A stretch of 64,000 nucleotides of DNA from Archangium sp. (GTDB lineage: Bacteria > Myxococcota > Myxococcia > Myxococcales > Myxococcaceae), in assembly GCA_030695565.1 (NCBI GenBank), contig JAUYRZ010000123.1, positions 124,001 to 188,000 on the forward strand, given 5' to 3'. A program made the position numbers and the translations under genes. Positions 5,767 through 10,401 of this stretch are shown here, in pieces (position 1 is the stretch's first letter; each line of letters begins with the position of its first letter). Below the pieces are notes generated by a model. It searched no databases and had not been told where the DNA came from. It saw only the letters and a program-made list of their open reading frames with translations.

Positions 5767-7011
5767 GTGGTCGACGCCGAGCCGCAAGACGAGTTCCGGA
5801 TGAGCCTGATGGAGCACCTGGGCGAGCTGCGCAAGCGGCTCATGCGGGTGACCATCGCGGTGCTGGTCCTCGGCAGCGCCTCGCTCATCTTCGCGCGCGA
5901 GGTGTACGGCCTGCTGATGCGCCCGGTGCTGCTGGCCCTGCCCAGCGACTCGGCGGCGCTGGTGTACACGTCGGCGATCGAAGAGATCAACGTGCTGATG
6001 AAGATCGGCCTCTACGCCGGCATCTTCATGAGCACCCCGGTGCTGCTCTGGCAGATCTGGGGCTTCGTTTCTCCCGGGCTCTACGAGAACGAGCGCAAGC
6101 TGGCCGCGCCCTTCATCATCTTCGGCACCCTCGCGTTCCTCGCCGGCGCCACCTTCTGTTACCTGGTGCTGTTGCCGCAGATGTTCACCTTTCTTCTCCA
6201 GAAGGAGGACGCCACCGCCATCACGCAGCGCATGTCATCGGCCCGGCTCCACGAAGAAGACGCCGTGCGCTACCTGCGCCTGGGTGACTTCCAGCGTGCC
6301 GGGGCCTGGTCACGTGCTGCGCTGGGTGACTTGCAGGCGCCGGGTGATGGCAAGACGGAGCAGGGCGCCTTCGGCCTCACCCTCATTCCCAAAGCCGCGG
6401 TCGACGTGCAGGCGAGGCTCGAAGGTCTGGGCCGGTTGATCGACGCCCTCTCCGTGGCGCAGGGGCCTTCGGCTTCGCCCCTGTTGATCGCGGCCACCGA
6501 CAAACGGGGCGATGCGGTGAAGGCCTGGTCTGAGGGGAACTTCTACGCGGCCACCGCCCGCCTCGATGAAGCAGCCCAGGTGTTGATGGGCGTGGTGCCC
6601 GAGAAGTCGGGCGAGGTCGCCGCGTTGTGGGAGCTGGAGAAGCTGCTGGGCGTGGCGCAGGCCCGCTCGGAGTCGCTCAACTGGACCAAGCCGATGCTCT
6701 CGATGAACGAGCAGCTGACCCTGGTGCTCGTGCTCGAGCTGGCCTTCGGGGTCATCTTCGAGCTGCCTCTGGTGATGGCGGTGTTGGGGCTGACCGGTCT
6801 GGTCAGCTCGAAGTTCCTCTTCAAGTACCAGCGGCACGCCTTCGTGGTGTGCCTCATCGTGGCCGCGTTGATCACCCCCACCGGCGACGCGGTGAACCTG
6901 GCGCTGATGGCTGGCCCCATGCTGCTTTGTTACGAGCTGGGCGTCGTGCTGGTGTGGCTGGTGGAGAAGCGTCGCGCCCGCTCCGAGACGATCGTTCCCC
7001 CTACGCAATAG
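5767..7011 (+). CDS. tatC: Twin-arginine translocase TatC with ~160-residue periplasmic-loop insertion
   Basis: 414 residues from a GTG start, against about 250 in ordinary TatC. The core is clear: EHLGELRKRL before helix 1, STPVLLWQIWGFVSPGLYENER between helices 2 and 3, then FGVIFELPLVMAVL and LIVAALITPTGDAVNLALMAGPM for helices 4-6. The extra length is one block, about residues 146-305, between helix 3 and helix 4, which in TatC is the second periplasmic loop. It is helical and holds TPR-like pieces (YLRLGDFQRAGAWSRAAL and AWSEGNFYAATARLDEAAQVL). The frame is intact, so this is a genuine insertion. TatC binds twin-arginine signals; the insert may be a docking or gating domain. Confidence 0.93.
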   Translation: MVDAEPQDEFRMSLMEHLGELRKRLMRVTIAVLVLGSASLIFAREVYGLLMRPVLLALPSDSAALVYTSAIEEINVLMKIGLYAGIFMSTPVLLWQIWGFVSPGLYENERKLAAPFIIFGTLAFLAGATFCYLVLLPQMFTFLLQKEDATAITQRMSSARLHEEDAVRYLRLGDFQRAGAWSRAALGDLQAPGDGKTEQGAFGLTLIPKAAVDVQARLEGLGRLIDALSVAQGPSASPLLIAATDKRGDAVKAWSEGNFYAATARLDEAAQVLMGVVPEKSGEVAALWELEKLLGVAQARSESLNWTKPMLSMNEQLTLVLVLELAFGVIFELPLVMAVLGLTGLVSSKFLFKYQRHAFVVCLIVAALITPTGDAVNLALMAGPMLLCYELGVVLVWLVEKRRARSETIVPPTQ

Positions 7012-7503: not shown

Positions 7504-7548
7504 AATGAGCGCTTGGGTCCCAGGAGACCCCGGCGCTCATTCTTTTTT
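7504..7548 (+). terminator. Rho-independent terminator for rightward transcription
   Basis: AATGAGCGC (7504-7512) pairs perfectly with GCGCTCATT (7533-7541), followed on the plus strand by CTTTTTT. The T-tract is on the plus side, so it ends rightward transcripts, i.e. the 6S-like RNA, not the leftward aldolase gene whose last codons it overlaps. Confidence 0.8.
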
Positions 7549-8205
7549 GCGGGGCCCGAGGCCGGCTTTTTTCCTCGCCTCGAGCAGCTTCGCCACGTCA
7601 CCCGGGGGCAGGGGTTCCACCTGACCCAACTGCCGGGCCGCGGTGAGAATCTTCGCGTAGTGCTCCAGCAGCTCCATGCGCAGGAGCGCCTGGTTCAGAT
7701 CGGCGCCCAGGGTCAACGCGCCGTTTCCCGCGAGCAACATGGCGTCGACCTGCGAGGCGGCCGCTTCGACCCCCTTCACCGCTTCGGGCGTCTTGGGCAT
7801 CGCGCGCGGCACCGTGGGGATGCGATCGCCCAACGAGACCACGATCTCCGGCATGGCCACCGGGGCCAGCTCCAGCCCCACCAGGCCAAAGGCGGTGGCG
7901 CAGGGCGGGTGGGCGTGCAGCACCACCTCAATCTCCGGCCGGGCGCGGTAGGCGGCCAGGTGCAGCTCGAGCTCGGAGAAGGGCTTCTTGCGCCCCTCGA
8001 GCACCTTGCCGTCCATGTCGACGATGATCAACGAGGCGTCGTCGACGTCGAGCTTGGAGTACGCGGTGGGGGTGATCAGCAGGCGGTCTCCCCTCAACCG
8101 CAAGGAGATGTTGCCGTCGTGGTTGGCCACCCAGCCCAGCTGATGCAGCCGCCGCGAGGTGGCGACCAGCTCTGAACGGACCTTGGGAAGCGGTGCGACG
8201 GGCAT
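7537..8205 (-). CDS. Class II aldolase/adducin-family protein, variant metal site
   Basis: 222 residues from ATG 8205. The fold signatures are clear: GNISLRL near residue 32, LLITPTAYSKLD, SELELHLAAYRAR (Glu78 and His82 as in the family) and VVLHAHPPCATAF (His97, His99). These belong to zinc-dependent aldolases of the fuculose/rhamnulose-phosphate type. The usual third zinc ligand in the NHG motif is replaced: the equivalent segment reads LLAGNGALTLG (Asn161). Loss of that His could weaken metal binding or change the reaction. Two microcompartment vertex genes lie directly upstream with a 5-nt gap, so it is probably the enzyme associated with that shell. Confidence 0.85.
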   Translation of the reverse strand: MPVAPLPKVRSELVATSRRLHQLGWVANHDGNISLRLRGDRLLITPTAYSKLDVDDASLIIVDMDGKVLEGRKKPFSELELHLAAYRARPEIEVVLHAHPPCATAFGLVGLELAPVAMPEIVVSLGDRIPTVPRAMPKTPEAVKGVEAAASQVDAMLLAGNGALTLGADLNQALLRMELLEHYAKILTAARQLGQVEPLPPGDVAKLLEARKKAGLGPRKKE

Positions 8206-8210
8206 GGGCG

Positions 8211-8492
8211 TTACGCCGGCTTCGGCACGTCGACGGCGTCGACCACGCCGACGATCAACGCGCGGATGGGGGCGGTCTTGTCTTGCAGAACCTGGCGCAC
8301 GCCGCCGCCTTCGTTCATCACCAGCACCAGGTCGCCTTTGCCGGCCGAGGAGCTGTGGTCGATGGCGAGGTAGCTCTTGCCCAGCGGCTTTTGCTGCTCG
8401 TCGAGCGGCTGCACCACGAGGATCTTCCGCCCGGTGAACACGGGCAGCTTCTCGCTGGCGACCACGGTGCCCAGCACGCGACACAGATTCAT
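8211..8492 (-). CDS. EutN/CcmL-family microcompartment vertex (BMC-P) protein
   Basis: 93 residues. It begins MNLCRVLGTVVASEKLPVF and continues GRKILVVQPLDEQQKPLG, AIDHSSSAGKGDLVLVMNEGGGVRQVL and IVGVVDAVDV: the complete EutN/CcmL domain (PF03319), which forms pentamers capping the vertices of bacterial microcompartments. Length matches the family. It is the second of two such genes in a leftward cassette ending in the class II aldolase. No BMC-H hexamer gene is present within the window. Confidence 0.92.
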   Translation of the reverse strand: MNLCRVLGTVVASEKLPVFTGRKILVVQPLDEQQKPLGKSYLAIDHSSSAGKGDLVLVMNEGGGVRQVLQDKTAPIRALIVGVVDAVDVPKPA

Positions 8493-8574
8493 AGGAGCGA
8501 CCCGGTAGCAGCGCGACGCTGCGCGAGACAGGCGGGAGCGAAACCGACGACGGGCCGAGGTGAGCGCAAACAGC

Positions 8575-8838
8575 TCATGCGTCGACCTCGTCGACCAGCC
8601 CGACGATCGCGGCGTCGACGGGCACGAACGAGGGGTCGCACGCGAGCGCGGCTTCTCGGCTGCCTTCGAGCATCACCAGGGTGCCGGGGCTGGCCGAGAC
8701 CAGATCGACCGCGACCTCCACCGCGCCCGACGGTTGGTTCTGGTGATCGACCGGCTGCACCACGAGAAAACGAGCGCCCTCGAGGCCGCTCACGCGACGG
8801 GTTGCGACGACCGTTCCGATGACCCGACCCAGATACAT
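8575..8838 (-). CDS. Second EutN/CcmL-family vertex (BMC-P) protein
   Basis: 87 residues from the ATG at 8838, chosen because MYLGRVIGTVVATRRVSGLEG aligns with the N-terminus of its neighbour; ten extra in-frame residues upstream look non-native. Conserved blocks: FLVVQPVDHQNQPSG, VAVDLVSASPGTLVMLEGSREAAL, VDAAIVGLVDEVDA. It diverges clearly from the other copy, as expected when different pentamers occupy one shell. It heads the cassette, with 82 nt before the next gene. Confidence 0.9.
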   Translation of the reverse strand: MYLGRVIGTVVATRRVSGLEGARFLVVQPVDHQNQPSGAVEVAVDLVSASPGTLVMLEGSREAALACDPSFVPVDAAIVGLVDEVDA

Positions 8839-8883: not shown

Positions 8884-10401
8884 CTACGGCGCGATGGCCA
8901 CGCCGACCTTGAAGGGCAGCTCGACCTGCGTCTCCGCGTCGGAGCCGGGGAAGACGATGCGTTTGCCGGTGCTCATCATGCACTGGCCCCAGTCGGTGAT
9001 CTCATGCTTCTTGGGCTCGATCGCGGCCGACTTCACCGCGCCCGAGGGGCCCACGTTCAGGATCACCGTCACGTTGCCCACCGAGAGATTCGGGTTTCGG
9101 CGCAGCGCGGTGTCGATGCAGGTCTGGAAGGCCTTCGACTTGTCGGCCACCACCTTGCCCACCGCTTCGGCCGACAGCCCCGAGGTGTTCACCGAAGAGC
9201 CCGTGTTCTCCTGGCCGCCGCCGCGAATCTTGGGCACCCGGGTCTTGCGATCGTCCTCCCCGTAGAAGGCGGCGAGGTTCGGGTCCTGCACCTTCGGCTT
9301 GACCACTTCGGGCTCCTCCACCACGCCGGGTTTCGCAGTGGCCTTCGCTTTGGCGGCCAGCGCGAGGGCTTCCCGCTCCTGGCGCTGTTTCTCGGCTTCC
9401 TCCCGGCGTTTCTTCGCGTCGCCGGTGAGCAGATCTTTGAGGCCGGCCGCGCCGCCCGCGGAGAAGAAGCTCTCCTGCACCTCTTCACCGTTCTCGTTGG
9501 TGCGGGTGACCGTGGGCAGGGTGACGATCTCGAAGGTGTTGAGCACGTAGATGAGCACCAGCGGCGCCACCACGAAGGCCATCACGAAGAGGGCGATCTT
9601 CCACGGCGGGTTGCGTTTGTTCACCCCGGCCTGGGCGATGAAGAAACGGGTCGCTTCACCGGGCGGGGGCGCTTCTTTGCCGTCGTTGTCGCTGAGCGCT
9701 GCGAACGGATCGACCGGTGCGTTGGCGGCCTGCAGCTCGGCCAGATCGCCCGAGGGCTCTTCTTGCTGCGCTGCGCGGGGCACGTCGTGCAGGCCGCTCA
9801 CGTCGCCGAAGAGATCGTTGAGCGGCTCGTGGCCGCGTTGCGAGACCACCGCTCCAGAGCCGCTCTGCGCGGTGGGCCGGGTCAGCTCGGGCGAAGGCAC
9901 TTCGTTGGCCACCGCCACGTCGCGCTGCACCGCGGGCACCGACTTGGTGGGGGGGCGAGGCGGAGGCGGCGGCGCAGCAGGTGCGGTGGCGCCGGCGAAC
10001 ACCGGGCTCACCTCGGGCAGGTCGGAGGCGCGTTTCCAGTCGCCCATGCCCGCTTTCCACAAATAGGTGCGCAGGGTCACTTCACCCGCGGCCACCCGGC
10101 GCTGCAGCTCACCCAGGTCGAAGGGCCCCTGCTGTTTGCCCCCCAACATGGCGAACCACTGCGCGGTGGTGTCGAGCGGGGGCATGGCCCGGGTCGACTC
10201 CTCTTCCCAGGGGCTGCGCTGGGCGGGCACCACGCCCCCGGTGGAGGCAGACACCTGCGGCGGTGCGGCCACGGGCGCCGTCACCGCGACGGAGATCAGG
10301 TTCTGACACTGTTTGCAGCGGATTTTGACGGACGCCTTCCCCACGACCTTGTCGTCGGAGATGACGTATCGCTTACCGCACTTGTCGCAGGTGACGTTCA
10401 C
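8884..10401 (-). CDS. GltJ/AgmX-like protein: zinc ribbon, GYF_2, membrane helix, AgmX/PglI C-terminal domain
   Basis: 505 residues. A zinc ribbon starts the protein (Cys5, Cys8, Cys29, Cys32; CDKC and CKQC, MJ0042-like). A GYF_2 domain spans about 82-131 (WFAMLGGKQQGPFDLGELQ, then LWKAGMGDWKRASDLPEV). A Pro/Ala linker leads to one membrane helix (about 271-295, WKIALFVMAFVVAPLVLIYVL). The periplasmic part has a charged helix and a C-terminal domain (about 395-505) with FQTCIDTALRRNPNLSVGNV and a TonB-like beta pattern, matching AgmX/PglI. This order is that of GltJ (AgmX) in the Myxococcus gliding machinery, where the cytoplasmic zinc ribbon and GYF domain sense MglA/AglZ. Whether this is the motility gene or a paralogue cannot be decided here. 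Confidence 0.88.
   Translation of the reverse strand: MNVTCDKCGKRYVISDDKVVGKASVKIRCKQCQNLISVAVTAPVAAPPQVSASTGGVVPAQRSPWEEESTRAMPPLDTTAQWFAMLGGKQQGPFDLGELQRRVAAGEVTLRTYLWKAGMGDWKRASDLPEVSPVFAGATAPAAPPPPPRPPTKSVPAVQRDVAVANEVPSPELTRPTAQSGSGAVVSQRGHEPLNDLFGDVSGLHDVPRAAQQEEPSGDLAELQAANAPVDPFAALSDNDGKEAPPPGEATRFFIAQAGVNKRNPPWKIALFVMAFVVAPLVLIYVLNTFEIVTLPTVTRTNENGEEVQESFFSAGGAAGLKDLLTGDAKKRREEAEKQRQEREALALAAKAKATAKPGVVEEPEVVKPKVQDPNLAAFYGEDDRKTRVPKIRGGGQENTGSSVNTSGLSAEAVGKVVADKSKAFQTCIDTALRRNPNLSVGNVTVILNVGPSGAVKSAAIEPKKHEITDWGQCMMSTGKRIVFPGSDAETQVELPFKVGVAIAP

What the first reader, a model, noticed from the sequence alone, without database searches (positions are those of the whole stretch)
7537..8838. 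Orphan microcompartment vertex genes with an aldolase that lacks a zinc ligand
Two EutN/CcmL pentamer genes and a class II aldolase-like gene form a leftward cassette. No BMC-H hexamer or aldehyde dehydrogenase is present in 64 kb. Planctomycete/verrucomicrobial-type sugar-aldolase microcompartments pair these families. In the aldolase the NHG zinc-binding motif is GNG. This may be a satellite of a shell locus elsewhere, or a shell-independent use of pentamers.
Basis: partly seen in the sequence, partly recalled or inferred. Interest (0 to 1): 0.7.

Follow-up and report, generated by a model that had tools for sequence, protein, structure and literature searches.

The report
Satellite genes of a myxobacterial microcompartment
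The two vertex-protein genes and the aldolase gene are not orphans: they are a known kind of detached piece of a bacterial protein organelle (the Haliangium ochraceum type) whose other pieces lie elsewhere in the same genome, and the aldolase's missing metal-binding histidine is a real change that has arisen several times in this enzyme family.

Summary
In detail: window 8838-7537 (-) encodes two EutN/CcmL pentamers and a class II aldolase whose third metal-ligand histidine (FucA His155) is Asn. The same genome has the HO-type (Haliangium ochraceum) main locus (BMC-Tdp, BMC-H, BMC-P, CoA-acylating AldDh, BMC-Tsp), a EutBC-EutL module, a PduL-acetate kinase fusion, and a DeoC with an encapsulation-peptide-like extension. 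Sutter et al. [quoted passage not shown] Elsewhere the cassette is fused to the main locus, and it co-occurs with the shell (aldolase in 30 of 32 shell genomes, 0 of 28 others). Fucose/rhamnose isomerases are absent; context points to acetaldehyde from nucleoside sugars. New here: His-to-Asn is fixed in the window's order, arose repeatedly (single clade rejected, AU p=0.009) and co-varies with Ala/Ser107 to Gly; Asn enzymes in shell loci keep encapsulation tails, so it is not simple decay. The DeoC extension occurs in 30 of 30 shell genomes and 0 of 26 others. Substrate, metal and activity are untested.

The parts
8575..8838 (-). BMC-P (EutN/CcmL pentamer) 1 of the satellite; paralogue of the main-locus BMC-P
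   Evidence: PF03319 89 bits; best PDB match 4i7a, EutN/CcmL; conserved upstream of BMC-P 2 in relatives
8211..8492 (-). BMC-P (EutN/CcmL pentamer) 2 of the satellite
   Evidence: PF03319 80 bits; best PDB matches CcmL 4n8x/6owf
7537..8205 (-). class II aldolase (PF00596), 222 aa, no C-terminal encapsulation peptide
   Evidence: PF00596 148 bits; AF2 model pLDDT 95.9, FucA fold Z 29; start ATG at 8205; tail ends GLGPRKKE
7720..7728 (-). Gly160-Asn161-Gly162: replaces the xHG motif, so the third metal-ligand His (FucA His155) is Asn
   Evidence: invariant in all 30 orthologues of the order
7909..7917 (-). His97-Ala-His99: the other two metal-ligand histidines, kept
7972..7974 (-). Glu78, equivalent of FucA catalytic Glu73, kept (invariant in 60 sequences)
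7885..7887 (-). Gly107, which co-varies with Asn161 (Ala or Ser in His161 enzymes)

Best explanation
The cassette is the type I satellite of an HO-type bacterial microcompartment in a Myxococcales-order myxobacterium. Its two pentamers are two of the three vertex proteins of a shell whose BMC-H, two BMC-T, third BMC-P and CoA-acylating aldehyde dehydrogenase are encoded on another contig (shown by sequence; assembly itself inferred). The organelle most likely turns acetaldehyde into acetyl-CoA and then acetyl phosphate and acetate; acetaldehyde would come from deoxyribose-5-phosphate (DeoC with an encapsulation-peptide-like extension), from ethanolamine (EutBC with the EutL shell protein) and, by inference, from a sugar 1-phosphate cleaved by the class II aldolase (for example 5-deoxyribulose 1-phosphate to DHAP plus acetaldehyde, as in DrdA). 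The aldolase keeps Glu78, His97 and His99 and probably binds a metal through these, with Asn161 as a weak ligand or none, so that a metal other than zinc is likely. Confidence by step: satellite of an HO BMC 0.95; acetaldehyde/nucleoside-sugar metabolosome 0.65; aldolase is an active metalloenzyme 0.7; its product is acetaldehyde 0.4.
For: Main locus on C9: BMC-H (best natural PDB match H. ochraceum HO-5815, E 4e-43), BMC-P (5v74, H. ochraceum, E 3e-34), BMC-Tdp (HO-5816, 2e-79), AldDh (PRK15398 subfamily, 638 bits, cut-off 403), BMC-Tsp. Satellite on C87: EutB, EutC, EutL. [quoted passage not shown] Cassette P1-P2-aldolase conserved (27 of 30 in the order with both pentamers adjacent; 67 of 80 named-collection loci have a pentamer nearby) and in one run with BMC-H/BMC-P/AldDh/BMC-Tsp in L062, L069, L070, L078, L086, L090, L098. 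Aldolase orthologue in 30 of 32 shell-bearing and 0 of 28 other relatives. DeoC extension (amphipathic helix plus Cys cluster) in 30 of 30 shell-bearing and 0 of 26 shell-less relatives; DeoC is within 60 bp of the aldolase in G043 and G048 and inside shell-encoding loci L076, L090, L114. PduL-AckA fusion. Nearest solved sequence by single-sequence search is DrdA 6btd, a Mn-preferring class II aldolase that makes acetaldehyde (PMC6079011). Glu78, His97, His99 invariant in 60 diverse sequences; Asn161 enzymes in shell loci keep C-terminal EP-like tails.
Against: No activity, metal or localisation data. The window aldolase has no C-terminal encapsulation peptide, so its place inside the shell is not shown. 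No NCBIfam equivalog reaches its cut-off, so the substrate is not identified. Kinase and isomerase for a 5-deoxyribose route were not searched. Two shell-bearing relatives (G029, 87% complete; G058) lack the aldolase, and in G058 the two pentamers are followed by another gene, so the aldolase can be lost. Amphipathicity of the proposed EP helices is only suggestive (shuffle p 0.03-0.17 for most, 0.10 for DeoC, 0.5 for L038). Co-occurrence counts are not corrected for shared ancestry.
Confidence: 0.75

Rival explanations
1. The Asn161 enzyme is no longer an aldolase: with His97, His99 and Glu78 left it has a 2-His-1-carboxylate site and has become an iron-dependent or other enzyme (oxygenase, decarboxylase, epimerase or dehydratase) serving the same organelle.
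For: The fold hosts Fe(II) enzymes: the model matches pyruvic oxime dioxygenase, NovR and TqaM with Z 22-24. The switch is fixed in the order, recurrent and co-varies with residue 107, as expected for a change of chemistry.
Against: Sequence and structure are closer to FucA/DrdA/YgbL; the listed iron enzymes keep three His ligands as far as I know (own knowledge, not tested); enzymes with His161 and Asn161 sit in the same kind of locus.
Confidence: 0.15
2. Pseudoenzyme: the aldolase lost catalysis and is kept as a structural or regulatory partner (as adducin in the same superfamily).
For: A metal ligand is lost; G058 lost the gene while keeping the pentamers; the window copy has no EP.
Against: Glu78, His97, His99, Asn32 and fourteen further columns are invariant over 60 sequences down to 41% identity; a decaying active site would not be expected to show a paired 107/161 switch.
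Confidence: 0.12
3. Shell-independent use of the pentamers.
For: The genes are on a different contig from the shell genes.
Against: Complete shell genes are present in the same genome and co-inherited in relatives; the cassette is fused to shell genes in other genomes.
Confidence: 0.02
4. PVM-type fucose/rhamnose microcompartment.
For: Class II aldolase with a BMC; FucA-like fold.
Against: Shell proteins and gene order are HO; no L-fucose or L-rhamnose isomerase in a genome rated 100% complete.
Confidence: 0.03

Closest known systems
HO BMC (Haliangium ochraceum type), type I satellite with two BMC-P and an aldolase (Sutter et al. 2021, PMC8217296)
   Same: BMC-P triplet, one BMC-H, HO-5816-like BMC-Tdp, AldDh, two-BMC-P-plus-aldolase satellite, EUT module, DeoC-family enzyme with N-terminal extension
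   Different: The text read here does not mention the metal-ligand loss, the paired residue 107 change, the Cys cluster in the DeoC extension, or a constant tie of that extension to shell presence (it says 'some of these orthologs')
E. coli L-fuculose-1-phosphate aldolase FucA (1fua)
   Same: Fold (Z 29, rmsd 1.8), Glu73, His92, His94 equivalents
   Different: His155 is Asn; Tyr113, Ser71 and Gly44 positions are not kept in the window enzyme; 28% identity; no fucose isomerase in the genome
DrdA, 5-deoxyribulose-1-phosphate aldolase of Bacillus thuringiensis (6btd, PMC6079011)
   Same: Best single-sequence PDB match (4e-21), same fold; DrdA makes acetaldehyde
   Different: DrdA keeps NHG; no microcompartment; substrate of the window enzyme unknown
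ACI BMC of Acidobacteria (PMC8217296)
   Same: BMC-P triplet and a pfam00596 aldolase with C-terminal EP
   Different: Different AldDh and a hydroxyacid dehydrogenase in the locus; not compared in sequence here

Membership tests
HO-type BMC | Main locus with BMC-H, BMC-P, BMC-T and AldDh close to H. ochraceum | tested here: met
HO-type BMC | Three BMC-P genes in the genome | tested here: met
   exactly three PF03319 matches; three in most shell-bearing relatives
HO-type BMC | Type I satellite: two BMC-P plus aldolase away from the main locus; in the main locus in type II | tested here: met
   text
HO-type BMC | AldDh on the SPU5/SPU7 branch | not tested
   only the EutE-like CoA-acylating subfamily was tested
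HO-type BMC | Proteins assemble into a shell | not testable with these tools
   needs expression and microscopy
Class II aldolase/adducin family (PF00596) | Profile and fold | tested here: met
Zn class II aldolase (FucA type) | Three-His metal site (FucA 92, 94, 155) | tested here: not met
   third His is Asn161
FucA, AraD, OtnC, MtnB equivalogs (NCBIfam) | Score above the curated cut-off | tested here: not met
   best 102.7 bits against cut-off 251
PVM fucose/rhamnose BMC | Fucose/rhamnose isomerase pathway present | tested here: not met
   PF02952 and PF06134 absent
DrdA | Cleaves 5-deoxyribulose 1-phosphate, Mn-dependent | not testable with these tools
   needs assay

The most novel reading that the evidence does not exclude
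In HO microcompartments the class II aldolase has repeatedly switched from a three-His metal site to a two-His-one-Glu site by a paired change (His161Asn with Ala/Ser107Gly), giving a metal-switched or new-chemistry enzyme that defines a functional subtype of the organelle.
Probability: 0.25. Interest if true: 0.75.

Novelty: new variant of a known kind. Interest (0 to 1): 0.5.

Why it matters
The H. ochraceum shell is a main structural model of microcompartments, but what the organelle does is called enigmatic (PMC8217296). The strict tie between the shell and the DeoC extension, and the pairing of DeoC with the class II aldolase in one cassette, make the acetaldehyde/nucleoside-sugar hypothesis directly testable. 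The repeated loss of a metal ligand, with a paired second change, is a natural experiment on metal use in class II aldolases.

Tried and rejected
Alignment slip as cause of GNG: rejected, the final Gly and flanks align in all 30 orthologues and FucA. Duplicate of a complete locus: rejected, no aldolase in the main locus. Compensating metal ligand in Asn161 enzymes: none found; the columns that gain acidic residues (55, 70, 80) do so only partially. Link between Asn161 and EP loss: all four combinations exist. The other pfam00596 gene of the genome (C33, RHG) is a 36% paralogue, not the partner. The independent-pairs test of 107 with 161 had too few pairs on supported branches for significance. 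A plasmid search gave only remote aldolases under 60% identity. H. ochraceum itself was not retrieved by name. A paper search for a described ligand loss gave nothing, but the library lacks most subscription journals and supplementary files were not open to me.

Full report
What is there. On the minus strand, 8838-8575 and 8492-8211 encode two EutN/CcmL pentamers and 8205-7537 a 222-residue class II aldolase. The aldolase has Gly-Asn-Gly (codons 160-162) where E. coli FucA has His154-His155-Gly; FucA His155 is the third metal ligand (established knowledge of FucA). His97, His99 and Glu78 are kept.

The shell is elsewhere in the genome. The window is C108:124001-188000 of an 8.52 Mb, 134-contig assembly rated 100% complete. 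PF00936 matches lie on C9 and C87, and the third PF03319 gene is on C9. C9 reads BMC-Tdp, BMC-H, BMC-P, AldDh, BMC-Tsp. Best PDB relatives are H. ochraceum HO-5815 for BMC-H (the top row, 6ner, is an engineered tandem fusion), the H. ochraceum pentamer in 5v74, and HO-5816 for BMC-Tdp; for BMC-Tsp, PduT-type proteins come first and 5dih (whose sequence is shared with the H. ochraceum shell-protein entries 6n06 and 6n0f) follows. The AldDh is of the CoA-acylating EutE-like subfamily. [quoted passage not shown]

It is a known kind of locus. Sutter et al. [quoted passage not shown] Both are found here. Among 60 relatives, a close aldolase orthologue (58-100% identity) is in 30 genomes; all 30 have shell genes, and of 28 genomes without a shell none has it; two shell genomes, G029 and G058, lack it (G020 and G034, with one weak PF00936 match each, are counted as shell-less, and G007, 78% complete, shows BMC-T and two pentamers only). 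Both pentamers are adjacent in 27 of 30, one is seen at a contig end (L033), and in two genomes they lie about 22 kb and 6 kb away on the same contig. In a named-genome scan, 67 of 80 aldolase loci have a pentamer of this kind within the fetched flank, and in seven loci BMC-H, BMC-P, AldDh, BMC-Tsp, P1, P2 and aldolase form one run, with BMC-Tdp in five of them.

The metal-ligand change is real and more than a curiosity of one genome. In the aldolase family tied to these loci 69 sequences have Asn161 and 36 have His161. All 30 orthologues of the window's order have Asn. On a tree built without the columns concerned the state changes 7 times (bootstrap 6-8, at least 3 forced by well-supported branches); a single clade of Asn enzymes is rejected (AU p 0.009, quick tree). 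Residue 107 is Gly in 67 of 69 Asn enzymes and Ala or Ser in all 36 His enzymes; it also changes 7 times on the tree. The test of independent pairs goes the same way but has too few supported pairs to be significant. One locus, L099, has Gly-His-Gly, a possible intermediate.

It is not simple decay. Glu78, His97, His99 and Asn32 are invariant in 60 sequences down to 41% identity. In shell-encoding loci the aldolase has a linker and a C-terminal helix of encapsulation-peptide type, and this holds for Asn161 enzymes as well (L076, L090, L114). The window enzyme and nearly all of its order have lost this tail, so whether it enters the shell is open. An AlphaFold2 model (pLDDT 95.9) has the FucA fold, Z 29.

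What the organelle may do. There is no fucose or rhamnose isomerase in the genome. On the window's own contig, about 108 kb from the cassette, lies a DeoC-family aldolase with an N-terminal helix and a cluster of cysteines. In relatives this extension is present in all 30 shell genomes that have the DeoC and in none of 26 shell-less ones (27 align from the start, G037 and G041 were read directly, G058 is inferred from the alignment start). DeoC is next to the class II aldolase in G043 and G048, within about 6 kb in G015, G019, G028 and G038, and inside the shell locus in L076, L090 and L114. A PduL-type phosphotransacylase fused to acetate kinase is on C73. Sutter et al. suggest nucleic acid catabolism for HO BMCs and note such an extension in some DeoC proteins; the strict association found here strengthens that. 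EutBC also gives acetaldehyde. The aldolase's closest solved sequence, DrdA, makes acetaldehyde plus DHAP from 5-deoxyribulose 1-phosphate and prefers Mn. I therefore propose that the class II aldolase is a further acetaldehyde source; this last step is inference only.

Verdict. The locus is a new member of a described satellite type; the recurrent, paired ligand switch in its aldolase is a variant for which I found no description in the papers I could search.

Noticed in passing
G000 C108:22680-23600 (L161:5681-6604) and L163-L189: DeoC with an N-terminal helix plus a conserved Cys cluster (e.g. CAPSCFECANHDTC); extension present only in shell-bearing relatives. The Cys cluster looks like a possible metal or Fe-S site.
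   Followed up: partly
window 5767-7011 (+): TatC of 414 aa whose Pfam match is split in two stretches, with roughly 160 extra residues in between.
   Followed up: no
window 8884-10401 (-): Zinc-ribbon plus GYF_2 protein directly upstream of the pentamers; a gene with a similar sequence layout sits next to the pentamers in G058 (L153:6282-7604), so the neighbourhood is old.
   Followed up: partly
L153:5718-6271 (G058): Both pentamers kept but followed by a gene that looks like a DNA methylase instead of the aldolase: the aldolase is dispensable in at least one shell-bearing lineage.
   Followed up: partly
L162:6542-8311 (G000 C73): Acetate kinase fused to PduL-type phosphotransacylase in one 589-aa protein.
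   Followed up: partly
L070:6665-7927: Rhomboid-domain gene between the pentamers and the aldolase in a fused HO locus.
   Followed up: no
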